Positions 2,249 through 25,852 of a DNA stretch of 64,000 bases are shown here, one piece after another. The DNA is taken from assembly GCA_009664345.1 (NCBI GenBank), contig CP043547.1:6042709-6106708 (forward strand), given 5' to 3'. Each line of letters opens with the position of its first letter. The stretch's first letter is position 1. Made by a program: the position numbers and the translations under genes. Below the pieces are notes generated by a model that was given only the letters and a program-made list of their open reading frames with translations, was not told the DNA's origin and made no database searches. The DNA comes from Planctomycetales bacterium 10988 (GTDB lineage: Bacteria > Planctomycetota > Planctomycetia > Pirellulales > Pb10988).

Positions 2249-3913
2249 ATGGACTCGGACGACAAGTCACCAGCAAACTCTACTCCGACAAATTCCACTT
2301 CTCCGCAACCTGCTGAACAGACCAAGACGCGGTTTGCGTGGCTCGACTGGATTGAACGCTGGGGCAATCGTCTGCCCGATCCTGTGAGCCTCTTCATCAT
2401 TGCTGCCGTGATGATTTTGCTGGCCTCCGAATGGGCTGCTCAGGCAGGTTGGCAGCAAACGAATCCCGTGACCGGGAAGGTCGAACAGGTCAAAAGCCTA
2501 CTTTCCCAAGAAGGAATGGAATGGGTTTGGCTCCACTTGGTGGAGAACTTCACCGGCTTTCCGCCTTTGGGCGTCGTGTTGGTTGCCATGTTGGGAATCG
2601 GAGTGGCGGAGCGATCGGGTTTATTGGGGACGATGCTCAAAGCGATGGTACTGATCACACCGGCTGTTTTTCTCACCCCGGTGCTTGTCTTTGTCGGAGT
2701 GATGAGCAGTTTTGCCCTCGATGCCGGGTATGTCGTACTCCCCCCACTGGCGGCAGCTGTTTTTCTTCGGGCGGGTCGAGCCCCGCTGGTGGGCTTGGCA
2801 GCCGTCTTTGCCGGAGTTTCCGCTGGTTTTAGTGCGAATCTCTTTATTACTTCGCTTGATCCATTGTTACAAAGTTTTACGCAGTTGGCCGCGGCTACGC
2901 TTGATCCCAATTATATTGTTGACATCCGTTGCAATTATTACTTCATGATTGTCTCAACGATCTTGATCACGTTTGTTGGTTGGGCGGTTACGCATTGGGT
3001 GGTCGAACCTCGTTTTTCCCAAGCGGAAATTCGCGAGATGATCACGGCTGCCGAACCGGAGGAAACTTCGGTTTCAGACGCTCCTGCCGAACCGGAAGAA
3101 AGCAAACCGAAGAAGGATCGACTCTCTTGGACAGAATGGAAAGGACTGTTGATCGCTGGCGTGACCATTGCCCTTAGCACCGCGGGGATTGTTTTCTTGA
3201 TCGTTAGTGAAGGCGGTTCCCTCAGTGGAACTATCGAGCCGCGTCCTGGTTGGGAAGTGGAAGTTTGGGTCGAAGCGATCGTGCCGATTCTCTTTGTTCT
3301 TTTTTTACTGCCAGGCATCGCTTATGGTATTGCAGTCGGCACGATTCGCAGTGATCGAGACTTCGCCAAGATGATGGCCGGAGCGATGCAAGCCATGGGC
3401 ACTTATATCGTGCTTGCTTTTTTCGCGGCTCAATTCATCAGTTGGTTTAACGAATCCAACCTCGGGACCGTTTTCGCCTTACAAGGAATCGCTTGGTTGC
3501 AGCAACTTCAACTTCCCCTGTGGCTGTTGGTAATTGCCATGGTGATCTTGGCAGCGATTTTGAATCTGGTGATGGGGTCGGCCTCGGCAAAGTGGGCCTT
3601 TATGAGTACCGTCTTTGTTCCGATTTTCGCCGGAATAGGGATTAGTCCCGAACTGACCCAAGCCGCCTACCGCGTCGGGGATTCCGTTACCAATGGCATC
3701 GCCCCGCTCAATCCTTATTTAGTCCTGGTCTTGGTTGTGATGCAGAAATATCGGCCTAAAGCCGGCATCGGCTCCCTCATTTCTTTGATGCTTCCCTACA
3801 CCATTGCCTTCTTCTTCGCCTGGGTGGCGTTACTTCTGGTGTGGATGGCCTTCGATTGGCAACTCGGTCCAGGGCGTGCCCCCCTCTTTATCGAACCAAT
3901 CGCTGGAGCATAA
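2249..3913 (+). CDS. AbgT family transporter
   Basis: 554-residue polytopic inner-membrane protein of the AbgT family (p-aminobenzoyl-glutamate transporters; some members export sulfonamides). About 12 hydrophobic segments are visible. The N-terminus has the typical LDWIERWGNRLPDP entry, and a late VGDSVTNGIAPLNPY segment matches the conserved C-terminal hairpin. A charged Glu/Lys-rich cytoplasmic loop of about 45 residues (around residues 255-300) separates the two halves. The substrate cannot be read from sequence. The gene is convergent with the LRR lipoprotein gene: only 7 bp lie between the two stop codons, leaving no room for a separate terminator. Confidence 0.88.
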   Translation: MDSDDKSPANSTPTNSTSPQPAEQTKTRFAWLDWIERWGNRLPDPVSLFIIAAVMILLASEWAAQAGWQQTNPVTGKVEQVKSLLSQEGMEWVWLHLVENFTGFPPLGVVLVAMLGIGVAERSGLLGTMLKAMVLITPAVFLTPVLVFVGVMSSFALDAGYVVLPPLAAAVFLRAGRAPLVGLAAVFAGVSAGFSANLFITSLDPLLQSFTQLAAATLDPNYIVDIRCNYYFMIVSTILITFVGWAVTHWVVEPRFSQAEIREMITAAEPEETSVSDAPAEPEESKPKKDRLSWTEWKGLLIAGVTIALSTAGIVFLIVSEGGSLSGTIEPRPGWEVEVWVEAIVPILFVLFLLPGIAYGIAVGTIRSDRDFAKMMAGAMQAMGTYIVLAFFAAQFISWFNESNLGTVFALQGIAWLQQLQLPLWLLVIAMVILAAILNLVMGSASAKWAFMSTVFVPIFAGIGISPELTQAAYRVGDSVTNGIAPLNPYLVLVLVVMQKYRPKAGIGSLISLMLPYTIAFFFAWVALLLVWMAFDWQLGPGRAPLFIEPIAGA

Positions 3914-3920
3914 ATTCGGT

Positions 3921-4652
3921 CTAATTCCCATCGGAAGGATGCTGATGATCGTGACCACTGGGATCAAAATCCAGATGGCGTTGATTGATGTGAATATGTA
4001 ATTCGGGACAATGTTCCATCAGTTGGAGAAGCCCCTCGTCACTGACCTGAGCCCCATCAAGGTAAAGCGATTCCAATTGCTGAAAGGAATGAAGGGCCAT
4101 TAATCCTTCATCGGTGATGGGTGCTTGAATGAGATGCACAAATCGCAGCGAAGGAAAATTTGGCAAACTTTTCATGGCTGCATCCGTCAGCTTCGAACTT
4201 CCGACACGCAGCAGTTCCAACTTGGGCAATGCAGAGAACTCCGCGAGTTGCCTGTCGTCAATTTCCGCCTGAGGAATATTCAACACCCGAAGGTTCTGTA
4301 AGAAAAGCAAGGCCTTGGTTGCCGTCTCTTCCAGCTTTGTCTCTCGAAGAATCAACATTTCGAGTTGCGTCAGCGAAGCGATTGCTTTTATTGACTCTTC
4401 ATCCAGGGATGGTTGTTCCAGCTTGAGTCTTTGCAAAGTAGGAAGTTCAACAAGTTGGCCAAGTTGTTCGGACGTGACCGGTTCACGCATCTCGATTTCT
4501 GTAGAATCACCGGATTTTACTTGATCGACAAGCGACTGCCAGGAGGGAGTTGGCTTCTCAAAAGTACTTTTTGCATCTGAAGGAGCATCTGTCTCGCATC
4601 CAATGCTGAGAACTGTCAAGAGGAGTACAGCAGCGGGTAAAGATCGAGACAT
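3921..4652 (-). CDS. Leucine-rich repeat lipoprotein
   Basis: 243 residues starting at ATG 4652. The frame is open further upstream, but that stretch overlaps the oxidase gene and is not convincing. A short N-terminal hydrophobic segment ends in a lipobox (LSIGC, Cys about residue 19), predicting an exported lipoprotein. From about residue 60 there are roughly six to seven LRRs with the L-x-x-L-x-x-L pattern (QLEMLILRETKL, LRVLNIPQAEI, LELLRVGSSKL, LESLYLDGAQV), like the planctomycete LRR proteins with 'T-D-x-x-L' turns. It is the last gene of the respiratory operon, 2 bp after the subunit III-like gene, so it is probably co-transcribed. Its link to respiration is unknown. Confidence 0.8.
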   Translation of the reverse strand: MSRSLPAAVLLLTVLSIGCETDAPSDAKSTFEKPTPSWQSLVDQVKSGDSTEIEMREPVTSEQLGQLVELPTLQRLKLEQPSLDEESIKAIASLTQLEMLILRETKLEETATKALLFLQNLRVLNIPQAEIDDRQLAEFSALPKLELLRVGSSKLTDAAMKSLPNFPSLRFVHLIQAPITDEGLMALHSFQQLESLYLDGAQVSDEGLLQLMEHCPELHIHINQRHLDFDPSGHDHQHPSDGN

Positions 4653-4654
4653 GA

Positions 4655-5218
4655 CTAGCCCACCAAGTACAAGACAGCGAGCATAATTAACCAAACGCCG
4701 TCGAGAAAATGCCAGTAAATGGCACAAAAGCGGACCGAAGTAAAATCTTCGTGATCGTAACGGAGGCGAAAGCCTTGAAACGTCACCCAAAAGAGAACTG
4801 CCAGCCCAGCGATAAAGTGCAAGGCATGCAGCAACACGAGGGTAAAGACAATCCCATACATTTGAATATTCACTTGTAGGGATTCGTAATGATCGGCGAG
4901 AAGGGTCCAAAGCAAAGAAGTTTGGATGATGGCAAACCCACCACCAAGGAAGGAACTCGCCAGCAGGAATTGACGGAAACGCTGCTGACGTTCGAAACGG
5001 ATTTCATGCACTGCAATATGCAGCGTGATACTCCCCCCTACCAGAAAGAGGGTACTGATCCAAAATCCTAGCGGCAGCGAGATCGCTCCGTAACTCAGAT
5101 GCGGGCTGTTGATGCGAATGATCGCATAGGCGAGCATCCCCGCAACAAAAAAGATCGCAAGCGTCAGAAGAAAAATGTAATAGCCAAGTTCAAGCCGTTG
5201 ACGTGCGTGCCAGACCAC
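4655..5218 (-). CDS. Second cytochrome c oxidase subunit III-like protein
   Basis: 187 residues with five hydrophobic helices, the size and pattern of the bacterial heme-copper oxidase subunit III (CtaE/CyoC) family. The C-terminal stretch (CAIYWHFLDGVWLIML) matches the conserved YWHFVDxVW signature. Start taken at GTG 5218, preceded at good spacing by GTAGGG; the frame is closed by a TAG shortly upstream and has no ATG there. It follows the subunit IV gene and lies downstream of another full subunit III gene, so the operon carries two subunit III homologues. Subunit III stabilises subunit I and proton uptake; whether this copy replaces or supplements ctaE is not visible. Confidence 0.85.
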   Translation of the reverse strand: MVWHARQRLELGYYIFLLTLAIFFVAGMLAYAIIRINSPHLSYGAISLPLGFWISTLFLVGGSITLHIAVHEIRFERQQRFRQFLLASSFLGGGFAIIQTSLLWTLLADHYESLQVNIQMYGIVFTLVLLHALHFIAGLAVLFWVTFQGFRLRYDHEDFTSVRFCAIYWHFLDGVWLIMLAVLYLVG

Positions 5219-5252
5219 AGAAGCCCTACCGATGGCAAGCTAGAGAACATGC

Positions 5253-5798
5253 CTACTGCGGTTGCGTTGCCGGAGCGGGAGTAGCAGCAGGGGTTTGTTG
5301 GAGATTGAACGATTGGATTTCATTGTTATAACTGTCCACATCGACCAACGTTAACCCAACAAATAACGCCACAAAAATCAGACAGCCCAGAAAGAACATG
5401 ACGTTGAGCGGCTTGTCATAACGCATGTGCATGAAGTAGGCCCCGACCAGCCCGGCCTTGACCGTGGCGATGGTCAACGCGATATAAAGGTCAGGAACTC
5501 CGAAGTAAATCGGGGGAAGTTCGACGACCTCAATTCCTCCAGGAGTCGGATACCACAGTTCGCCGCCTGCGAAGATCACCGTGAGGACGGTAAAGACAAT
5601 CAAAGCAAGGAAAACCATGAAAAGCACGGGCATAGGCATGATGTGGGAGATCCCATGATGGTCATCACCGTGGGCATGATCCGGGCCATGCGCTTCCATT
5701 TCTGCCTCACGCGTCGAGGTCACCGTGGTTTCGTCTTCCACCCGAGCTACCGGAGTAGGGTCTTCCTCTGTGGGATGCGTTTGGTTTTCTTCAGACAT
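5253..5798 (-). CDS. ctaF: Cytochrome c oxidase subunit IV (prokaryotic type)
   Basis: 181 residues. A charged, His-rich N-terminal tail of about 50 residues is followed by three predicted transmembrane helices and a Pro/Ala/Thr-rich C-terminal tail. The helical core, with TVKAGLVGAYFMHMRYD, fits the bacterial CyoD/CtaF-type subunit IV family, small accessory subunits of heme-copper oxidases. It lies between ctaE and the second subunit III gene in the oxidase operon. The long soluble N-terminus is longer than in typical ~100-residue family members. Assignment rests on position and the GxYFMHM signature. Confidence 0.85.
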   Translation of the reverse strand: MSEENQTHPTEEDPTPVARVEDETTVTSTREAEMEAHGPDHAHGDDHHGISHIMPMPVLFMVFLALIVFTVLTVIFAGGELWYPTPGGIEVVELPPIYFGVPDLYIALTIATVKAGLVGAYFMHMRYDKPLNVMFFLGCLIFVALFVGLTLVDVDSYNNEIQSFNLQQTPAATPAPATQPQ

Positions 5799-5871
5799 CG
5801 TGATAAAGTCCTTACAGCCTCAAATCGATGAGTTTCGTTGAAATTCTTGTGTTGGCAGACAGACAGCACGG

Positions 5872-6894
5872 TCAACGTATCAGATATAATAAGGGGAAAA
5901 GATAAATCCAAATCAAGTCGACCAAGTGCCAATAAAGTCCGACGTAATCCACCGGACCGAAGTATTGTTCGTTGAAATGTCCCATGCAGGAACGGACGAG
6001 CAACCACCCAATCGCGATCATGCCTGCGACAATGTGAATCGCGTGCAAGCCGGTCATGCAGTAATAGATGCTAAAGAAGATTCCTGCATTGCGAGGAATA
6101 TCGGTTTCGTCCGTCTCTTCTTTTTCTTCCCCAAAACTGAGGGCTGCCGGGACAGGAATTTCTCCCACTTCCGCCTCGTTTCCTTGAATACTTTGCATCT
6201 GCAACTCAAGGGGAGTCAGCGGAGCACGGAAACCCGTTGGGGGAGCAACAGCTGAAACCATATCTTCTTCCGGTGGAGTCGGAGGGGGAGGATTGCCGCC
6301 ACCCTCTAACGTTTCGGATTCACCAGAGGCAGACTCTTCGGAACTTCCTTCTTCATGCCCTTCAGAAGCATGCGAATCTTCGGCATGCTCGTCGTGATGT
6401 CCTTCGCCGGTGAGAATATCATCATCTTCATGTCCATGGGAGGAATGGGGATCGAACCAACCTGCCCAATAAAGTCCTTCATGGAATTTGTGGGTGTATT
6501 CAAAATACTTCACCACCAGGAAGAGGCCGGCACAAACGAGCGTAATCGTTAAACAGACGATCAATCCAACCCGTTGATTGAGTTGGGCACATCGCACTGC
6601 CCAGGCCATGGTGAGACTACTGAAAATCAACACGCAAGTATTGAAAGCACCAAGTGTTGTGTCGAGGTACTGATGGGCATAGATGAAAATCTCTGGATGG
6701 AGATAACGATAAACAATGTATGCGGTAAAGAGGCCACTGAAGAACAAAATCTCCGTGACGAGAAATAACCACATCCCGAGTTTCCCCGAGTCAAACTGTT
6801 GTTGCGGGGTATCAAAATGATGAGCGAGAAACGCTGGGTGATCATGCTCGGCATGGTCTTCAGAGGTTTCCGCGATCGCCTCACTCGTTGCCAT
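5872..6894 (-). CDS. ctaE: Cytochrome c oxidase subunit III with acidic/His-rich loop
   Basis: 340 residues from ATG 6894; an in-frame GTG at 6939 is a weaker alternative. The N-terminal helices (GKLGMWLFLVTEILFFSGLF) and the C-terminal DYVGLYWHLVDLIWIYLFPL are canonical for subunit III of aa3/caa3 oxidases. Between helices, about residues 148-268 form a hydrophilic insertion very rich in His, Asp, Glu, Ser and Pro that is not part of the family core. It lies directly downstream of ctaD in the operon. It is an integral membrane protein that stabilises the catalytic subunit; the role of the insertion is unknown. Confidence 0.9.
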   Translation of the reverse strand: MATSEAIAETSEDHAEHDHPAFLAHHFDTPQQQFDSGKLGMWLFLVTEILFFSGLFTAYIVYRYLHPEIFIYAHQYLDTTLGAFNTCVLIFSSLTMAWAVRCAQLNQRVGLIVCLTITLVCAGLFLVVKYFEYTHKFHEGLYWAGWFDPHSSHGHEDDDILTGEGHHDEHAEDSHASEGHEEGSSEESASGESETLEGGGNPPPPTPPEEDMVSAVAPPTGFRAPLTPLELQMQSIQGNEAEVGEIPVPAALSFGEEKEETDETDIPRNAGIFFSIYYCMTGLHAIHIVAGMIAIGWLLVRSCMGHFNEQYFGPVDYVGLYWHLVDLIWIYLFPLLYLIR

Positions 6895-6980
6895 CGGTAT
6901 CTCAGTCCTACCAGAAGAGGGTCGAAAGTAAGAATTCACGAAGTTGGTCTTAAGGGAAACGGCAGCGTTTCCTACGAGGG

Positions 6981-8690
6981 TCAGTGGTCAGCCGTTGCCG
7001 CACCCTTCTCCTCCGCACGCACGATATAACTTTGGCTCGGCGGATCGTATTCTACCCGGGTAAAATCATAAGGGAAGGAGGCCACCGGGGCTCGTTTAAA
7101 GTTGTAATAAGGAGGTGGCGAAGCACATTGCCATTCCAAGCTGACCGCTCCCCAAGGATTCGCAGGTGCCCGCTTCCCATTGAAAAGGGACAAGATCAAA
7201 GCAATCGCGGCGAGTAGCAACCCAAAGCCAAGCGTAAATGCTCCCACCGAAGAGAGGAAATGCAAGAAGGCATATTCCGGCTCATAATCGAAATAACGGC
7301 GGGGCATCCCGTGGGTTCCCAGCAAAAATTGCGGGAAGAAGGTCAAGTTGAAGCCAATCAGCACGATCAAGGCACTCAAGCGACCAAGCCACTCATTGTA
7401 CATCCGCCCGGTCATCTTCGGCCACCAGTGGAAAATTCCACCGACAAAGGCCACCGCGGTTCCCCCCATCATCACATAATGGAAGTGAGCCACGACAAAG
7501 TACGTGTCGTGCAAGTGGACATCGGTCGCCAGCGTCCCAAGGAACAGACCTGTTAATCCACCCACCGTAAAGAGGAAGATGAACGACAGGGCATAACACA
7601 TCGGAGTCGTAAAGCTGATCGAGCCACGCCAGAGCGTCGCCAGCCAATTGAAGACTTTAATCGCCGAAGGGATCGACACGCTAAAGGTCAAGGCACTAAA
7701 GACAATCGCCGAAACGGGGCTTTGACCGCTGGTAAACATGTGATGTCCCCAGACCAAGAAGCCAAGCAAGGCCAACGCCACACTACTAAAGGCAATAAAA
7801 CGATAACCGAAAATTGGCTTATGACTATGAATGCTGACTAGTTCACTGATGATCCCCATCGCCGGCAAGATCATGATATAAACGGCCGGATGGGAATAAA
7901 ACCAGAAGAAATGCTGGAACATCACCGGATCCCCGCCCAAAGCCGGATCGAAGATCCCGATTTGCAACAGTCGTTCCGCAATCAACAACAGCCCGGTAAT
8001 CCCGATGACCGGGGTAGCCAAAATCTGAATGATCGCCGTGGCGTACAAGGCCCAAAGAAGCAGCGGCATTCGGAACCAAGTCATGCCCGCCGGACGCATG
8101 GTATGAATCGTGACAATAAAGTTTAGCCCTGTAAAAATCGAGCTAAACCCAAGCACAAAAACCCCAAGCAGTGCCGAAATCACACTGGAAGACGTCGTTG
8201 TACTATAAGGAGTGTAGAACGTCCAACCAGTATCTAATCCGTTCATCAACATCGAACCGACAAAGAAAACCGCTCCCAAGACCCAAAGATAATAGCTCCC
8301 TAAGTTCATCCGTGGGAACGCAAGGTCTTTGGCCCCGAGCATAATCGGCAGCACAAAGTTACCGATCGAAGCGGGGACGCTGGGAATGATGAACAAGAAG
8401 GTCATGATTGCCCCATGTAAGGTAAATACATGGTTATAGGTTTCGGCACTCATGATCGTTTGGCCGGGCCACATCAGTTCGAGACGGACGGCTAAGGCCA
8501 ACAATCCACCAATCAGAAAAGAAAGGAGGATTGAGACAAGATACATAATCCCAATCCGCTTGTGGTCCAAGGTAAAGAGCCACGAGCCGATCGAGGTACT
8601 TGGGTGCGTGAGATAATTTTCAGGAGATTGAAAGAGAGGAGAATCGGGAGCAGGCGAAGCTCCCGGTGTGGGTTGCACTTCCACAGCCAT
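6981..8690 (-). CDS. ctaD: Cytochrome c oxidase subunit I, A2 type
   Basis: 569 residues, about 12-13 helices. It is the catalytic subunit that reduces oxygen to water at the heme a3-CuB centre and pumps protons. Visible ligands are His92 (low-spin heme), His267 and the His316-His317 pair (CuB), and His402 and His404 in AHFHY (hemes), with Tyr271 for the His-Tyr crosslink. The helix VI motif reads YSHPAVY (265-271), with no glutamate. This is the YS signature of A2-type oxidases such as the Rhodothermus caa3 enzyme, which also partners Alternative Complex III. The [13 protein letters not shown] loop of the D-channel is kept. The start ATG follows an AGGTG-like site 17 bp after ctaC. Confidence 0.95.
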
Positions 8691-8707
8691 TTTATCACCT
8701 GCCTTTT

Positions 8708-9799
8708 CTATTTAAGCGTTTTGAGGTAAGCAATAATTGCATTGATTTCTTCGTCTTTGATTTGACCTTGGAAGGTCGGCATCACGGCAGGATAGCCTTT
8801 GTGAATCTTAGCTTGTGGGTTCAGAATCGATTCACGGATGTAATTTTCATCCATCACAACTTTTTCGGATTGGCCTTCGATTTCTCGTTCTTTTCCAAAG
8901 GCCCCTTTAAAGGTCGGACCTTTCATGGCAGAACCATCGATCGAGTGGCATTGGTTGCACCCTTTTCGCTGATACAGCATCTCCCCGGCTTTTTCGTAGC
9001 CATAGTTCCCGACGAGATCCCCTTCTTTAGCTAACCACTTTTCGAATTCGCCCCAGTCTTCGACTACAACTTTAGCCAACATGGCGGAATGTTTTTCCCC
9101 GCAATATTCGGTGCAGAAGAGCTTGTACTCCCCCTTCTTCGTGGCGTTCATCCACATCTTAGTATACCGACCAGGGACCACATCCATCTTCGTGCGGAAG
9201 GCAGGTACATAAAGGCTATGGATGACGTCCGTAGAGTTCATGACAAGACGGACATCTTGATTGACAGGCAGATGAAGTTCATTCGTGCTGATATCGCCGG
9301 GGTAGGTGAATGCCCAGGCCCACTTCTTCGCATTGACCTGAATTTCGTAAGCTTCTTCCGGAACGGTCCGCAAATCAAGATAACCCACGAAGCCCACATA
9401 AAAGAGGTACACCAAAAGAAAACTTGGGATGACGCTCCAAGCGATTTCCAACGCATTGTTATGACTGGGGCCACCCAATGCCGGAACGCCTTCACGGCGG
9501 CGATAAAGCCACATAAAGGCGAGCATAAGGCCCGTAATCAACACAAAGAAGAAGAGGCAAAGATATAGGATGAAATAGAAAACCCAATCGATGCCCTCTG
9601 CGACGTTCGAAGCGGCAGGGGGGAACCAAAAAGAGCTACCCGGCGGCAATTGCCCGAAGAGGGCCGGCAAGGTGCCCAAGATCGTCGAGAGGAACGAAAA
9701 TAAAGATGTTGTAAGCATTTCAAGCATGGCTGCTTGGTCCATGGAGATGACAAACGAATCGTAAGGAGGCTTGATCCAACTCAGATCAATCAACGACAC
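8708..9799 (-). CDS. ctaC: Cytochrome c oxidase subunit II with C-terminal heme c domain
   Basis: 363 residues from GTG 9799; an ATG at 9742 (residue 20) is a possible alternative. Two transmembrane helices (about 72-100 and 118-140) anchor a periplasmic cupredoxin domain. The CuA ligands are visible as His194, Cys229, Cys233, His237 and Met240 ([12 protein letters not shown]). A C-terminal mono-heme cytochrome c domain carries CNQCH at 281-285 and a distal Met in the final 20 residues, making this a caa3-type subunit. It accepts electrons, probably from ActE or ActA of the neighbouring complex, and passes them through CuA to ctaD. Confidence 0.95.
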
Positions 9800-9816
9800 G
9801 TAAAAGCAAAGTCTTG

Positions 9817-10776
9817 CTAGCTCGATTCTGAAGAGGGTTCATCCGAAACCGGCTCACCCGGCGGAACCTTCTCTTCATGCTCATGAGGTAGTTCGTGTGG
9901 TTCGTGTTTAAAAAACCAATAGGGGATCAGAAAAATCGCCAAAGCCAACACGGTAGCAAACCCACCGAGTTGCATAATTCGCCAAACGATCGGCGAGTAG
10001 CGACCTTCTTGAAAATCATAGTGGAAGCAATAAAGAATAATTTGATCCATCGCGGAACCGATTTTTCCTTCGCTCGCTTCAACCAGTGAAAGTTTTAAGG
10101 TTTGACTATTGATCGCAACCCCATAGAGATAGCGGGAAAGCTTTCCCTCTGGAGTGCAAACCATCAAAACCGCCGCATGAGAATATTCTCGGCGAGCGGG
10201 GAGATATTCATATCGAAAGCCAACGGCATCCGCAACGCGACGGATTTGTGCCTCTTGACCTACCAGAAAATGCCAGCCTTTCGCCGCAGCAGGTTTTCCA
10301 TAGGCTGTAGCATACCGTTCTTTGGTCAAGGCCGCCTGCTTGAAAGTCTCGGAAGGATCGATACTGATCGATACAATTTCGAATTCTTCACCCGGCATCC
10401 AATCGGCAAGCGGGTCTTCTCGCAGAGCATCCACCAGACCATTGAGTTGCACGTTGCAGAGCATCGGACAGCTTGAATAGTTTAACGAGAGAATGACCGG
10501 CTTTCCTGATTGAAAATAAGTTCCCAGCGGAACCGGATTTCCCTTTTCATTGTAGAAAAGGGTTTTCAGAGGAATTTGATCGCTGAGTTTCTCCGTGATG
10601 CCGACTTTGTCAATTTCATCCGGCTTTTCTCGAATCACCTGAGCCGAAGTCGAAGAAACAAGTCCGACTAACAGAACCACAAGGCAGACGAAACCCCCAA
10701 TGGATTTCCGAAAAGAAACCATAGCAGAGGGTGTTTTCGTCGAAATTGTGGTCAAGATGTTCATAAAATTGATCAA
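9817..10776 (-). CDS. SCO1/SenC copper chaperone with C-terminal membrane anchor
   Basis: 319 residues of thioredoxin fold. The copper-binding CPMLC motif is at residues 103-107 and the third ligand is His200 in YSHAAV. An N-terminal signal/anchor (about 24-46) and a second helix near residue 275 (LALAIFLIPYWFF) are followed by a His/Glu/Pro-rich tail, so the C-terminus may return to the cytoplasm. SCO proteins deliver copper to the CuA site of subunit II, which is encoded 17 bp downstream. The extra C-terminal helix is seen in several SCO proteins of bacteria with Alternative Complex III. Confidence 0.9.
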   Translation of the reverse strand: MINFMNILTTISTKTPSAMVSFRKSIGGFVCLVVLLVGLVSSTSAQVIREKPDEIDKVGITEKLSDQIPLKTLFYNEKGNPVPLGTYFQSGKPVILSLNYSSCPMLCNVQLNGLVDALREDPLADWMPGEEFEIVSISIDPSETFKQAALTKERYATAYGKPAAAKGWHFLVGQEAQIRRVADAVGFRYEYLPARREYSHAAVLMVCTPEGKLSRYLYGVAINSQTLKLSLVEASEGKIGSAMDQIILYCFHYDFQEGRYSPIVWRIMQLGGFATVLALAIFLIPYWFFKHEPHELPHEHEEKVPPGEPVSDEPSSESS

Positions 10777-20991: not shown

Positions 20992-21465
20992 ATGACCGAA
21001 ACCATGAAACAATCACAGTCTTCTACCAACTTACCTTCGATTTTTCAATCGCTCGGCTTGCTTATTTTAAGGTTGGGAGTTGGGGGCTATATGTTGTTTG
21101 GCCATGGACTCTATAAAGCTGAAATGTTGCAAGCAGAAGAAATTAAATTTGGCGATCCCATCGGCGTAGGTATGGAGACAAGCCTTTATTTAGCCATCTT
21201 TGGAGAAGCCGTCTGTGCAGGCTTGATCATGGCCGGCCTGTTAACTCGCTTGGCCTCGATTCCATTCTTATCCACGATGGCCGTGGCCGCTTTTGTCGTT
21301 CACGGTGCCGATCCTTGGTTGATGCAAGCCGCTGGCGGCGGAGCTTCCAAGGAACCCGCCATGCTCTATTTTATCCCCGCTCTGACACTTCTCTTTACAG
21401 GCCCTGGAATGTTTTCAATCGACCATCTCTTCTTTGGAAGAAAAAAGAAACAAGAGATGAAATAA
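20992..21465 (+). CDS. DoxX family membrane protein
   Basis: 157 residues with four transmembrane helices. The first helix carries the DoxX-like [17 protein letters not shown] pattern, and a later [12 protein letters not shown] loop fits the family. DoxX proteins are small four-helix membrane proteins, some of which act in thiol/redox stress or quinone-linked oxidation, but most have no known reaction. The start ATG follows an AAGGAAAG site. It is the second gene of a probable two-gene unit with the flavin reductase, which would fit a redox role. The next genes are on the opposite strand. Confidence 0.85.
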
Positions 21466-21499
21466 AGTTGAGTTAATAGCGACCAGTTAGAAACTAGAA

Positions 21500-21540
21500 G
21501 CGGCTTTGATAATGGGAATCTTTATCAGAGTCGCTTTTTT
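21500..21540 (+). terminator. Rho-independent terminator of the flavin reductase-DoxX unit
   Basis: GCGGCTTTGATAA pairs with TTATCAGAGTCGC (G-U pairs allowed) around a nine-base loop and is followed by TTTTTT. It lies 35 bp after the DoxX stop. Confidence 0.85.
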
Positions 21541-21608
21541 AAATTAGATATTTCTATTATGTCAGGCGGGTAAAAGTGGAGTCAAAAGGATGTTGAAATC
21601 AAGGCAAC

Positions 21609-21639
21609 AAAAAAGGAGAACCCAATCACAGGATTCCCC
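21609..21639 (-). terminator. Rho-independent terminator of the paired small-gene array
   Basis: Read on the minus strand, GGGGAATCC pairs with GGGTTCTCC (two G-U pairs) around a seven-base loop and is followed by six T. It lies about 30 bp after the last short gene and closes the array. Confidence 0.7.
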
Positions 21640-21670
21640 TTCTTGATTCAATCATCGAGTTTGACTTTGG

Positions 21671-21820
21671 TTAGTCTTCCTCTTTCAAATCTTTCTTCAC
21701 GGAGTCTGCATATTTTTTAATTTTTGCAGCGGCTTTATCATCTCCGATCGAGAGCTTTTTAGCTTGCTTCATCTTATCTTGGAACTTTTTCAGTTGTTTT
21801 TTGGGGTCTTCACCTGGCAT
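21671..21820 (-). CDS. Short charged protein, member 1 of the paired array
   Basis: 49 residues, beginning MPGEDPKKQLKKF and ending VKKDLKEED; about half are charged and it is predicted to be entirely helical. It is homologous by eye to the 49-residue proteins at 22679 and 23339, sharing MPxxDxKK at the start, a Lys-rich centre and K-[ED]-L-K-[DE]-E at the end. No signal peptide, membrane helix or known domain is seen. An AAGGA site lies about ten bases before the ATG. It is the second gene of its pair, 82 bp after the long member. Function unknown. Confidence 0.7.
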   Translation of the reverse strand: MPGEDPKKQLKKFQDKMKQAKKLSIGDDKAAAKIKKYADSVKKDLKEED

Positions 21821-21902
21821 GGAGGTTGATCCTTTCAAAAAAATTTAATTAGTAAAAAACAATCATACGGCTTTATGAACAAGGAGAATTCATCATGAAC
21901 GA

Positions 21903-22367
21903 TTAGGAAGGACGCAAGTTAGGTTTGACTCCAGCCAAGGCTTTGGTGACATCCTTGATAAACTTTTTGGACGAACTCACGGACAACTTCTTGAAGGGAT
22001 TCTTGGTGTCTTTTTGTTTCTGTTTTACAAAAGCATCGAATCTACCAAGTTTTTGCAAAATATTAGATTTTGAAGTCTCGATTTCATCAATGAGGCGATT
22101 GAGCTGACCTTCGATGGCTTGAGTGGTTTCTTCAATTTTATCCGCATCTCGTCCAAGTTTGACATAGTCAGGGTCTTGATTGGCTAACCGTTCTTTTGCT
22201 TGATGTCGAGTGTAGAGAATTTCCACACGTTGATTCACCAACTCAATCGCTTCATTCGTAATATCGAACCAGTTTTTTTTCACTACATTAAAGTTTTTTA
22301 AATGTGCATCTAACATCTTCAAATCTTTGCTGATATCATCGATAAATGCATTCGACCGCTTACCCAT
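21903..22367 (-). CDS. Helical protein, long member 1 of the paired array
   Basis: 154 residues, hydrophilic and predicted to be mostly alpha-helical/coiled coil. The start is MGKRSNAFI with AGGAG eight bases before the ATG. The middle has DPDYVKL and the C-terminus has NPFKKLSVSSSKKFI; both blocks recur in the proteins at 22883 and 23537. No signal peptide, membrane segment, zinc or nucleotide motif is seen. The gene is followed by its short partner at 21671. The 311-bp gap upstream, with hairpins and a repeat, may hold its own promoter. I know no family with this pattern. Confidence 0.8.
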   Translation of the reverse strand: MGKRSNAFIDDISKDLKMLDAHLKNFNVVKKNWFDITNEAIELVNQRVEILYTRHQAKERLANQDPDYVKLGRDADKIEETTQAIEGQLNRLIDEIETSKSNILQKLGRFDAFVKQKQKDTKNPFKKLSVSSSKKFIKDVTKALAGVKPNLRPS

Positions 22368-22591
22368 CTTAAACTCCTTTAGTAAATAGAATAAAGAACC
22401 TCTCCGGGGGATAAAATAAGAGAGGTTGTAAGAACCAATCTTCAGAGTATCGTACTCTGAGTTTACTTTCTTAGTGGCTCGGACAAAACTCCAAGATTTG
22501 AAGTAAAAGCACTCGGGCTTGAGTGGTATAGTCGTTCTTGATTCAGTTTCGTCAGAGCTTCTTAGATAAATTGAAATAAATCTAAGAGTGT

Positions 22592-22665
22592 GTGGTCAAA
22601 AGTTACTTGAAAGCAACCTTTTCTAGGTCGTTATCTGTTTATAATAGGTTTTGACCGCTGGCTCT
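22592..22665 (-). repeat. Imperfect ~73-bp repeat with complementary ends, copy 2
   Basis: Starts GTGGTCAAAAGTTACTTGA and ends GGTTTTGACCGCTGGCTCT on the plus strand. It matches copy 1 (12594-12665) at both ends, while the centre has diverged. It lies 13 bp after the stop codon of the short gene at 22679 (minus strand). Two other small hairpins, CAGAGTA/TACTCTG at 22443-22459 and CTTAGAT/ATCTAAG at 22561-22586, lie in the same gap. Confidence 0.6.
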
Positions 22666-22678
22666 AATCTCTTGTCGC

Positions 22679-22828
22679 TTAACTTTCGTCCTTCAGTTCT
22701 TTCGATAGACTGCCTGCCATCTTCTTCGCTTTGGCAAGATTCTTCGCGTTTCCTCCTTTCTTCTTTTTAAGCTCCTTTATTTTTTTATCGAGCATCTTTA
22801 CAGTCTTTTTATGATCTTCACTAGGCAT
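22679..22828 (-). CDS. Short charged protein, member 2 of the paired array
   Basis: 49 residues, MPSEDHKKTVKML at the start and LSKELKDES at the end, with a very Lys-rich centre. It has the same length as the other two short proteins and is clearly related to them (the C-terminal LSKELKDE is identical to that of the 23339 gene). The ATG at 22828 has GAGGGA about eight bases upstream. It is the second gene of its pair, 54 bp after the long member at 22883. No known domain or export signal. Identical length in three diverged copies supports real coding. Confidence 0.75.
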   Translation of the reverse strand: MPSEDHKKTVKMLDKKIKELKKKKGGNAKNLAKAKKMAGSLSKELKDES

Positions 22829-22882
22829 GAGAAAATCCCTCAGCTATTTAAAGTAGATTGAAGAATAGTTAGTTTATTGTGA

Positions 22883-23326
22883 TTACTGTAAATCATTGAT
22901 CGCTTTTTTGGTGGCTTCGATAAATTTCTTCGAACTACCTACGGATTTCTTCTTGAAGGGGTTTTTCGATTTCTCCTTTTGTTTCACATACGTTTCGAAA
23001 TCACCAACAAGTTTTAAAAGAGCCCGTTTATTGGTGTCCACCAAACGGATCAGGCGATCGCTTTGTTGCTCAACGCGTTCCGCCTGTGGTTTTAACCGTG
23101 CTGCCTCGTCGACCAACTTTTTATATTTGGGATCGTTGTCGGCTTGGTCTTCATCCCCTTTATAAGTATCGTTAAGGATGATCGCGGCTGATTGCTCGGC
23201 CATTTGCCATTCGCTAAAGATGGTGACCGCTTCTTCGATTACCGTTTGACTGGCATTGAAATCGCGTTCCAATTCAGCCAAACCTTTCCCGATGGCGACA
23301 ATAAATTTATCTGATTCTTTTCCCAT
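22883..23326 (-). CDS. Helical protein, long member 2 of the paired array
   Basis: 147 residues, related to the proteins at 21903 and 23537. It starts MGKESDKFIVAIGKGL, has NDPKYKKL near residue 83 and ends with KNPFKKKSVGSSKKFIEA before a short helix. The central ~70 residues are diverged from its relatives and very helical (many Glu, Gln, Ala, Lys). The ATG at 23326 follows a purine-rich AGAAAGAAAGA stretch and comes only 12 bp after the stop of the previous short gene, so the two pairs are probably co-transcribed and coupled. Function unknown. Confidence 0.8.
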   Translation of the reverse strand: MGKESDKFIVAIGKGLAELERDFNASQTVIEEAVTIFSEWQMAEQSAAIILNDTYKGDEDQADNDPKYKKLVDEAARLKPQAERVEQQSDRLIRLVDTNKRALLKLVGDFETYVKQKEKSKNPFKKKSVGSSKKFIEATKKAINDLQ

Positions 23327-23338
23327 GGGTCTTTCTTT

Positions 23339-23488
23339 CTACTCTTCGTCTTTAAGTTCTTTTGACAAATCTTTGCTTGCTTTACGCATCTTCCCGATAT
23401 TTTTGATGTTCCCAAGTTTAATCTTGTCAAGTTCTTTCATTTCCGCTTCGATTTGTTTAATCGTTTTTTTGGGATCGTCTGCAGGCAT
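23339..23488 (-). CDS. Short charged protein, member 3 of the paired array
   Basis: 49 residues, MPADDPKKTIKQI at the start and LSKELKDEE at the end, predicted fully helical. It has an AAGGA ribosome site about six bases before the ATG. It lies 48 bp after the long gene at 23537 and 12 bp before the next long gene. It belongs to the family of 49-residue proteins at 21671 and 22679. Its mixture of Lys and Asp/Glu would allow pairing with a helical partner such as the neighbouring long protein; that is inference. Confidence 0.75.
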   Translation of the reverse strand: MPADDPKKTIKQIEAEMKELDKIKLGNIKNIGKMRKASKDLSKELKDEE

Positions 23489-23536
23489 GAGAATCCTTCT
23501 TTCTTTCAGTGGTGGCTGGGGTGTGAACTCGTTGAA

Positions 23537-23983
23537 TTAAACATTAATTCCGTTCAGCGTTGCTCTGGTATTTTTGATATACTTTTTCGAAGAAGCGATC
23601 GAAGTTTTCTTAAAGGGGTTCTTTGTTGACTTTGACTTTTCTTTCAAAAAGGTTTCAAACGTAGCGAGTTTGTTTTCCGTGTTAGAAATTTCACTGCGAA
23701 TCAGCTCGCGGAATTTACTGATTTGCTTATGGAGCTTTACTTTTTTGGGCATTAATTTCCCCAACTCATTAGTAAGCTTTGTATATTCTTGATCATTATT
23801 CGGGTCAGTATTTGATTGTCGGCAGTGATAAATAATCGTATTACGTCGATTTTCCTTTATTAGAATGTCACCACCTAAGATTCGATATTCTGTGATCAAC
23901 TTTTCAAGTGTCTTACAGTAGGTCTCGATATCTTTTAAACATCCGTCAATCGATTGGATATGTGCGTTACTTCGATCGCCCAT
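23537..23983 (-). CDS. Helical protein, long member 3 of the paired array
   Basis: 148 residues from ATG 23983, which has an AAGGA site eight bases upstream; an upstream extension to 24025 is open but starts without a good site. It begins MGDRSNAHIQSIDG, has NDQEYTKL near residue 75 and ends KNPFKKTSIASSKKYIKN plus a short tail. It is the first gene of the array and the most diverged long member in its core. Three Cys residues are scattered and form no motif. A 14-bp palindrome lies 76-89 bp upstream. Function unknown. Confidence 0.8.
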   Translation of the reverse strand: MGDRSNAHIQSIDGCLKDIETYCKTLEKLITEYRILGGDILIKENRRNTIIYHCRQSNTDPNNDQEYTKLTNELGKLMPKKVKLHKQISKFRELIRSEISNTENKLATFETFLKEKSKSTKNPFKKTSIASSKKYIKNTRATLNGINV

Positions 23984-24058
23984 TGTTAGTCCTTTCTTAG
24001 ACCGTAGGAGTGGATTAAGCGCCACTTTCTTTTGAATCGTGCCCTTGGATTACCTTGA

Positions 24059-24072
24059 TGGAAAATTTTCCA
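24059..24072. promoter_or_regulatory. 14-bp perfect palindrome upstream of the paired array
   Basis: TGGAAAATTTTCCA, 76-89 bp before the first array gene, with a related half (TTGATGAAAATTCC) next to it. The position suits an operator in the array promoter, but no regulator is known and the AT-rich sequence makes chance palindromes more likely. Confidence 0.3.
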
Positions 24073-24530
24073 ATTGATGAAAATTCCATTCTCTTGAAAA
24101 TACGCTGGATCGGACTTTCCAAGTATCTTCTCTTACTAGAAGCGAATCCCTTTTGCAACGCGTTTTCTAAAAGCCAATCGACAGAACCACTCAATCAGGG
24201 TGACACCGGGACAAGGTGGCTTCCCTTTTACTTTTGACGATCAACTCTAATCGTCTGTTCTGGCAGAGAGCGAACTCTGCTGACAGGTGCCCTGTCGGAT
24301 GCTTGGGATTTTTTGTATTTGGCAAAAACTATCCCGGTTACCAACTAGTCGCGGCTTACGTATTAAGGAGAGAATAGGAAGTAGACCACAAGTTTCTCCC
24401 TGTAACTGCTTCCTAAGGTACAGTGAGAAATTATCGAATACAATTAGTTCTCAATTCATTTTTCGAACTTCCATTTCTCTCCGATCTCGCTTCTGCAATT
24501 CTTATTGGAGCATTCTTTCACAAAACAAAA
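24073..24530. other. Gene-free stretch upstream of the paired array
   Basis: About 460 bp. Small hairpins can be drawn (GCAGAG..CTCTGC near 24262-24280 and ACAGG..CCTGT near 24281-24296). Open frames here have no family features. I see no tRNA or other known RNA. Confidence 0.4.
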
Positions 24531-24567
24531 AAAATCCTTGGCAGAATGATCTTCCACCAAGGATTTT
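24531..24567 (-). terminator. Rho-independent terminator of the HTTM unit
   Basis: On the minus strand AAAATCCTTGG pairs perfectly with CCAAGGATTTT, and the downstream arm runs on into eight T. It lies about 100 bp after the HTTM gene stop. Confidence 0.8.
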
Positions 24568-24670
24568 GGGATTTCTTTTTTGGTGTTCGCAAAATCGTTA
24601 CAATAGTCAATCTCTTCTCATGACAGAGATTCCTACCTAGCTTTGCGAGATCGAGTTTACTTAAACAGGG

Positions 24671-25852
24671 CTATGCATTCTTCGATACGTGCGTGGTTGA
24701 AGGAGCTCGTTTCCCGGCACCTTTGGCATGCGGTGGACCTGGCGGAGTGGCAATCACCTCCGGATGCGTATCCACAATGATCCCATCAACCAACCGAAGT
24801 TCTGGCAGGAGCTGTTGTTTGCGTTCGATCTCTTCCCAACTTGGGAGTGGTTTTCGTTCCAGAAGTGACCGGACAAGCCAACTCGGCGTCCAAGAGAGAT
24901 TGGCAAAGATCATCAACAGGCCAAATGGCATCATCCCCATTAGCAGGCCGATTCCAAGGTGCATCCCGATGATGTTTAACACCACCAGCGGCCGCAGCCA
25001 GCGATTCCAGACTAACGCACAGTAGCTCAATTCTCCGAAGAGAGCGGCTAATGTGATGAAGTTCAAAAGGTACGGCCAGTGGGCGAGCCAGGTGAGATCG
25101 AGCGTTTGAAACTCAAGATTTGCCAAGGCGTGCCAGACGGCTTCGCCCCCTAACCAGAGCGGCCCGGTTTTGCCAAGACCCGCGAAGAGGTAAACAATAC
25201 AAAGATGGACTTGCATGAAGCGAATCGCCAAGTTTGCCGACCAGCTAAGCGGTGTCAATTGACTGAGTTCAACAGGAAGTTCCTGACCACGGCGTTTGCG
25301 GATGTTTTTCTTGAGGTCGAGGGCTTTCGCTTCACGACGTTGCTTGAGCCAGGCATCGACCGAGTAACACGCTCCCGAAGGTCCAAGCATCATATAAAAG
25401 GCCAGAATCCCCGCCATTTGATCCACGCCATAAGTCCCCATCGGATTTCGTTGCAGGTAAGTGAGGACAACGATCCAGGTTAACACGCTGGTCACTCGAC
25501 TAAACAACCCAATCGTAAAACAGAACACGACAGCGATGCTCGTCAAGTGAGCGATCCAGAGAAGCGTTGGCGACTCACTCACCCAGGCCAGGTAATTCCA
25601 ACTCATGGTTGGAATATTACCCCGGAGTTGATCTCGGAGTTCAAGCGATTCTACCGTGACCCAGCTATCGGCCCCGTAGAAACTTTGAAGGTCGAAGGAC
25701 CACATGAACGTGGAATAGAGGAGTACACTTCCAATGAAGATACGTAAGAAACAATACGTCGCTGGGTCGCGTGGAGAAAACCAAAAGCGATTCCAACATT
25801 CAATCGTACGATGATAGCCCCGTTCAAGATAATTTTTGATCAGCGTGATCAT
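24671..25852 (-). CDS. HTTM domain membrane protein (vitamin K-dependent gamma-carboxylase-like)
   Basis: 393 residues. It starts with a WNRFWFSPRDPATYCFLRIFIG stretch typical of HTTM (horizontally transferred transmembrane) domain proteins, distant relatives of gamma-glutamyl carboxylase. Roughly eight helices are visible, including IVYLFAGLGKTGPLWLGGEA, where the family keeps a Lys near the putative active site. The C-terminal ~60 residues are soluble and Pro-rich. The activity of bacterial members is unproven. The start overlaps the stop of the upstream gene by four bases (ATGA), so the two are coupled and probably form a complex. Confidence 0.82.
   Translation of the reverse strand: MITLIKNYLERGYHRTIECWNRFWFSPRDPATYCFLRIFIGSVLLYSTFMWSFDLQSFYGADSWVTVESLELRDQLRGNIPTMSWNYLAWVSESPTLLWIAHLTSIAVVFCFTIGLFSRVTSVLTWIVVLTYLQRNPMGTYGVDQMAGILAFYMMLGPSGACYSVDAWLKQRREAKALDLKKNIRKRRGQELPVELSQLTPLSWSANLAIRFMQVHLCIVYLFAGLGKTGPLWLGGEAVWHALANLEFQTLDLTWLAHWPYLLNFITLAALFGELSYCALVWNRWLRPLVVLNIIGMHLGIGLLMGMMPFGLLMIFANLSWTPSWLVRSLLERKPLPSWEEIERKQQLLPELRLVDGIIVDTHPEVIATPPGPPHAKGAGKRAPSTTHVSKNA

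What the first reader, a model, noticed from the sequence alone, without database searches (positions are those of the whole stretch)
21671..23983. Three tandem pairs of a ~150-residue helical protein and a 49-residue charged protein
Seen: on the minus strand the order is long-short, long-short, long-short (148/49, 147/49, 154/49 residues). All three short proteins are exactly 49 residues and keep MPxxDxKK and K-[ED]-L-K-[DE]-E. The long ones keep MGxxSxxxI and a C-terminal NPFKK-x-S block. Each gene has its own ribosome site and the array has its own terminator. Pairs 3 and 2 are 12 bp apart. Inference: each short protein is the cognate partner of its long neighbour (complex, antidote, chaperone or regulator), and the array grew by duplication of a two-gene unit followed by strong divergence. 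I know of no described system with this layout.
Basis: partly seen in the sequence, partly recalled or inferred. Interest (0 to 1): 0.85.

Follow-up and report, generated by a model that had tools for sequence, protein, structure and literature searches.

The report
Paired helical and lysine-rich small proteins
A bacterium carries four copies of a two-gene module, one helical protein plus one tiny charged helix, that matched no described family in our searches; the two genes keep company and diverge together, so they probably form one complex whose job is still unknown.

Summary
In detail: three long proteins (148, 147, 154 aa) alternate with three 49-aa shorts, with the stated motifs and a terminator. 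A fourth pair lies elsewhere in the genome and a fifth in another family of the same order; in both, the short gene is upstream, so the unit is not simply long-short. The own genome has four strong longs and four shorts, all adjacent. In a 396-genome sample of the order, strong long and strong short hits fall in the same two genomes. Both trees share one well-supported split; pairing inside the array is unresolved. Family libraries gave only weak coiled-coil-type matches. AlphaFold makes the long protein a helical hairpin plus a C-terminal helix; the in-frame read-through of one pair models as a four-helix bundle, without a control. Best reading (0.5): short and long form one helical complex whose conserved ends contact a further partner. 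Toxin-antitoxin and type VII export readings have no positive evidence. It is a real, rare, undescribed pair, not shown to be a new kind of system.

The parts
23537..23983 (-). L1, long helical protein, 148 aa
23339..23488 (-). S1, short lysine-rich protein, 49 aa
22883..23326 (-). L2, long helical protein, 147 aa; 12 bp after S1 and in its frame
22679..22828 (-). S2, short lysine-rich protein, 49 aa
21903..22367 (-). L3, long helical protein, 154 aa
21671..21820 (-). S3, short lysine-rich protein, 49 aa
21610..21644 (-). hairpin with T-run after S3, likely intrinsic terminator of the array
   Evidence: fold -19.4 kcal/mol, z -3.75
24531..24567 (-). hairpin with T-run between the upstream HTTM-domain gene and L1, likely terminator of that gene

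Best explanation
The two genes encode the subunits of one all-helical complex. The long protein is an antiparallel hairpin of two ~53-residue helices plus a short C-terminal helix; the short protein is a single amphipathic helix that docks on the hairpin and completes a four-helix bundle. Conserved residues lie at the base of the hairpin (M1, G2, I9, I12 and F110, K117, K126, S128, K134, I136, partly basic) and at its tip (D65, K70, L71), which makes these ends the likely contact sites for a further partner (nucleic acid, membrane or protein): an adaptor or scaffold. The module is a rare accessory cassette, present three times in tandem here. Shown: genes, adjacency, coincident presence, shared tree split. 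Predicted: fold of L, packing of S. Inferred: the complex in the cell and its role.
For: Adjacency in 5 of 5 pairs. Own genome: 4 shorts at E<=10 and 4 strong longs, all adjacent. Strong hits of both profiles in the same 2 of 396 genomes. Same split {array}|{solitary pairs} in both trees, L 100/99, S 95/93; of 120 assignments of shorts to longs the 12 that respect it give r 0.73-0.92, the next 0.45. L2 model pLDDT 93.1, pTM 0.73. S1-L2 read-through model: S is one helix (6-47), pTM 0.69; 170 residues, S included, align with a designed four-helix bundle at Z 13.3, rmsd 3.2. All five shorts show a helical hydrophobic moment at 102-105 degrees that 4 to 36 of 2000 shuffles reach.
Against: The read-through link forces closeness, S has pLDDT block means of only 57-85, and no mismatched-pair control could be run. 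Z near 13 may mean only a common arrangement (note). Partner matching inside the array is unresolved. A profile of S1-S3 alone does not find S4 (below 4 better chance frames, E 5.4) and S1-S4 and S1-S5 similarity is reached by 9 and 23 of 1000 shuffles, so homology of array and solitary shorts rests on the others and on position. The tree program warned of long branches for L. Only five pairs are known, so no co-variation test is possible.
Confidence: 0.5

Rival explanations
1. The two genes are neighbours by common expression only; the proteins work separately, for example as a helical protein and a small lysine-rich binder of nucleic acid.
For: Each gene has its own ribosome-site-like stretch; 4 of 5 array junctions have gaps of 48-311 bp, the solitary pairs 123 and 188 bp. 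Shorts are 21-33% lysine, pI 7.9-10.0. Partner matching in the array fails.
Against: Adjacency in 5 of 5 pairs with different neighbours and the shared tree split; the hydrophobic stripe of S suggests a helix partner, though it could be another S.
Confidence: 0.25
2. Toxin-antitoxin or effector-immunity cassette: L harms the cell or a neighbour and S neutralises it by binding.
For: Two small adjacent genes, several copies, patchy presence (2 of 396 genomes), changing neighbourhoods, low GC in the array.
Against: No known toxin or antitoxin family among the listed matches; L is a plain helical bundle by prediction; in G032 the pair's GC3 (0.79) is like that of three neighbouring genes (0.80-0.86), so no sign of recent arrival there.
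Confidence: 0.15
3. Esx-like exported pair: L and S are substrates or a substrate with its partner for a type VII-like system.
For: Helical hairpin with a small helical partner; both genomes have a WXG100 gene, in the own genome next to an FtsK/SpoIIIE ATPase.
Against: WXG100 over the cut-off is in 77 of 117 genomes of the order, so it does not track the pair; the WXG100 profile does not hit any L locus in G000 or G032 at E<=0.1; no W-x-G in the hairpin turn; loci are far apart.
Confidence: 0.08

Closest known systems
WXG100 / Esx heterodimers (PF06013)
   Same: Small, adjacent, helical; long protein predicted as an antiparallel hairpin.
   Different: 147-166 aa rather than about 100; no W-x-G in the turn (one long, L5, has WFG but near its C terminus); the PF06013 profile misses the L loci; own WXG100 genes lie elsewhere.
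PspA / Vipp1 hairpins (PDB 4whe, 7o3x)
   Same: L model aligns at Z 9.7-9.9, rmsd 2.2-2.6 over 114-115 residues.
   Different: About 7-10% identity in those rows; not a better match than unrelated folds such as Smac (Z 11.2) or STAT5 (Z 11.4).
Type II toxin-antitoxin modules
   Same: Adjacent co-oriented pair of small genes, multi-copy, patchy.
   Different: No toxin fold or known antitoxin family found; function untested.
Designed four-helix bundles (PDB 5vjs, 6z0c)
   Same: Architecture of the read-through S1-L2 model, Z 12.7-13.3 over 170 residues.
   Different: Artificial proteins; arrangement only.

Membership tests
WXG100 / type VII substrate | match to the PF06013 profile | tested here: not met
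   Whole-genome profile search of G000 and G032 at E<=0.1 hits other loci, none of the five L loci
WXG100 / type VII substrate | W-x-G in the turn between two helices, about 100 residues | tested here: not met
   By eye in 5 longs: none in the turn, 147-166 aa; L5 has WFG near the C terminus
WXG100 / type VII substrate | C-terminal YxxxD/E signal (recalled) | tested here: not met
   By eye, absent from the last ~20 residues of the 5 longs
WXG100 / type VII substrate | export by an FtsK-type ATPase | not testable with these tools
   such a locus exists in the own genome but export cannot be tested
Type II toxin-antitoxin | adjacent co-oriented pair | tested here: met
   5 of 5 pairs
Type II toxin-antitoxin | one partner belongs to a toxin or antitoxin family | tested here: inconclusive
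   none among listed matches; Pfam for all ten proteins (for L4 best 25 of 43 rows shown), NCBIfam for longs and shorts, PADLOC for longs only
Type II toxin-antitoxin | growth inhibition relieved by the partner | not testable with these tools
   needs expression in laboratory E. coli
PspA/Vipp1-like membrane hairpins | sequence relationship to the family | tested here: inconclusive
   not among the listed Pfam or NCBIfam matches (some lists capped); structural Z 9.7-9.9 is tied with unrelated folds

The most novel reading that the evidence does not exclude
A lineage-specific two-protein cassette with specificity between partners, such as a new kind of toxin-immunity or exported helical pair, that multiplies in tandem and is still diversifying in this bacterial order.
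Probability: 0.15. Interest if true: 0.7.

Novelty: new variant of a known kind. Interest (0 to 1): 0.42.

Why it matters
It is a well-delimited pair of small proteins, undescribed as far as the searches reach, with a conserved partnership, seen so far in two families of one order. If the four pairs of one cell are mutually specific complexes, they are a compact natural test of how partner specificity evolves after duplication. Such taxon-restricted modules are also a standing gap in genome annotation.

Tried and rejected
Family libraries. Pfam with all ten proteins, NCBIfam with longs and shorts, PHROGs and PADLOC with the five longs only (the shorts were not scanned there): scattered coiled-coil-type matches, mostly one protein per family. 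The best were SpiroCoCo_C 9e-5, JetC1 1.6e-4, Rootletin 3.5e-4, phrog_6664 5e-4; the one family met by 3 of 5 longs was ASRP, an SMC-related protein (best E 0.0013). All listed Pfam matches are under their cut-offs; the tables by family give no cut-offs and some lists are capped. I take them as noise.

PDB by sequence: for L a designed SNARE mimic (E 7e-4) and a flagellin (0.0014) lead the list; for S nothing under 0.28. Foldseek with the L model: no match at E<=0.001 in PDB or BFVD.

Collections: viral contigs, three scans, no relative; genome contigs, two scans, no relative, a method that needs short conserved stretches and may leave out the own genome. Plasmids and phages by tblastn with 2 of the 5 longs (P0009, P0002): one phage match at E 0.07, taken as noise, and no other.

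Genome searches, samples that overlap: L2 alone in 97 relatives found only the own genome and missed G032, which was in that list, so single-sequence searches are too weak. With the L profiles: order, 396 genomes, 2 strong and 21 further genomes with weak matches (E 1e-4 to 0.01); phylum 392, class 397, relatives of G032 185: outside G000 and G032 only matches of E 6e-5 to 1e-3 in open frames of 187-2353 aa. I looked into two of these weak loci (L008, L016), which hold a lipoprotein-like and a signal-peptide-like coiled coil, and at one weak own-genome match (L060); the others I set aside on score and frame length only. The S profile had one further weak match, G357, E 0.006, not looked into. 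G015, the other held genome of G032's family, has no match.

Partner matching in the array was expected to favour short-then-long; only 58 of 1000 bootstraps did, so I dropped that argument. The mutL composition printed was read out of frame and is not used. Rfam: nothing in 21400-24700 at the gathering scores. Literature: five word searches of open-licence full texts, listings only, showed no description of such a pair; they used 'Planctomycetes' on my own guess from gene content, since no call names the organism. PMC3482391 was seen in passages only. Absence from print is therefore not shown.

Full report
WHAT IS THERE. The six genes are as described, at 21671-23983 on the minus strand. Within the array the longs are 29-37% and the shorts 37-53% identical. 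For all six within-array pairs 0 of 1000 composition-preserving shuffles reach the score, and conservation is at codon positions 1 and 2, not 3, so these are old protein-coding paralogues. No long DNA repeat links the units. A strong hairpin with T-run follows S3 and another lies between the upstream HTTM-domain gene and L1, so the array probably stands by itself. The flanking genes (flavin reductase-like, DoxX, HTTM) suggest no link. GC is 37-40% in the 1-kb steps over 21500-24499, against 44-53% in steps before 21000 and after 24500.

MORE PAIRS. L2 searched against the own genome found a fourth long gene, E 1.8e-4, about 3.4 Mb away in contig coordinates. A 56-aa lysine-rich protein that starts MP and ends KKELESEDD lies 123 bp upstream of it on the same strand. 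A profile of four longs found one further clear relative in a sample of 396 genomes of the order, G032 of another family (E 2e-14); 188 bp upstream lies a 56-aa protein ending KKELSGEPD, with mutL on the far side of the long gene. Neighbours differ between the three loci. With the final profiles, the own genome has four shorts at E<=10 and four strong longs plus two weak matches, E 0.008 and 0.11, in frames of 499 and 597 aa; G032 has one strong long and one weak match, E 0.04, in a 698-aa frame, and one strong short. In the order sample, strong hits of each profile fall in the same 2 of 396 genomes.

HOW FIRM IS THE SHORT FAMILY? G032's short was a row of the profile used. Without it, a profile of S1-S4 still ranks it first of 233 frames of that stretch, E 1.9e-4 for 1000 sequences; a profile of S1-S3 ranks it first at E 0.22 but does not find S4 among 423 frames of its stretch (E 5.4, behind four chance frames). 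Pairwise, 0 of 1000 shuffles reach S2-S4, S2-S5 and S4-S5; 1 reaches S3-S4, 2 S3-S5, 9 S1-S4 and 23 S1-S5. For the longs all ten pairs have 0 of 1000.

DO THEY BELONG TOGETHER? Both trees have the split of array against the two solitary pairs (L 100/99, S 95/93, with a long-branch warning for L). Over 120 assignments of shorts to longs the 12 that respect this split give r 0.73-0.92 and the next 0.45. Inside the array nothing is settled: the L node has support 48/28, and bootstrapped matching gave 153 of 1000 for long-short pairing, 58 for short-long and 493 for another permutation. Both solitary pairs are short-then-long and S1-L2 are 12 bp apart, so the ancestral unit may have been short-long; that is inference.

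STRUCTURE. AlphaFold of L2 with five rows: helices 3-55, 66-118 and 129-145, pLDDT 93.1, pTM 0.73. The 13 residues invariant over five longs fall, by these helix limits, at the base of the hairpin and at its tip. Structure matches are generic. S1 and L2 happen to be in one frame; with TAG read as Q they give a 201-residue chain whose model has S as one helix, 6-47, mean pLDDT 82.4, pTM 0.69, and which aligns over 170 residues with designed four-helix bundles, Z up to 13.3. Apart from the model, all five shorts carry a hydrophobic stripe near the coiled-coil angle.

HOW IT MAY WORK. I commit to a two-subunit helical complex (0.5), whose conserved ends meet a third partner. Independent proteins (0.25), toxin-antitoxin (0.15) and Esx-like export (0.08) remain. 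WXG100 genes are present in both genomes but also in 77 of 117 genomes of the order over the cut-off, so they are no clue.

NOVELTY. The searches named here found no described family. That makes it an undescribed protein pair, seen so far in two families of one order. On the evidence it works like ordinary co-encoded helical partners; nothing shows a new principle. Hence 'new variant of a known kind', interest 0.42.

Noticed in passing
L057 (G000:C1:5659000-5669000) 4457-9938; L058 (G032:C379) 3195-4166: WXG100 gene followed by a 229-240 aa protein without Pfam match, and in G000 a 1307-aa FtsK/SpoIIIE ATPase: a minimal type VII-like locus. WXG100 over the cut-off is in 77 of 117 genomes of the order. 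Solo WXG with a YueA-like ATPase in planctomycetes is already in PMC3482391 (passage).
   Followed up: partly
L057:1754-3733: A 659-aa protein with Pfam Recombinase domain just upstream of the WXG100 locus in the own genome; possible sign of mobility.
   Followed up: no
window 22883-23488: S1 and L2 share a frame and are separated only by a TAG stop and four codons, so read-through fusion is conceivable.
   Followed up: partly
window 21671-23983 and L004 1483-2235: GC3 of the eight genes in this genome is 0.33-0.48, below 10 other window genes (0.49-0.66) and 4 genes near the fourth pair (0.51-0.57); lysine codons or foreign origin.
   Followed up: partly
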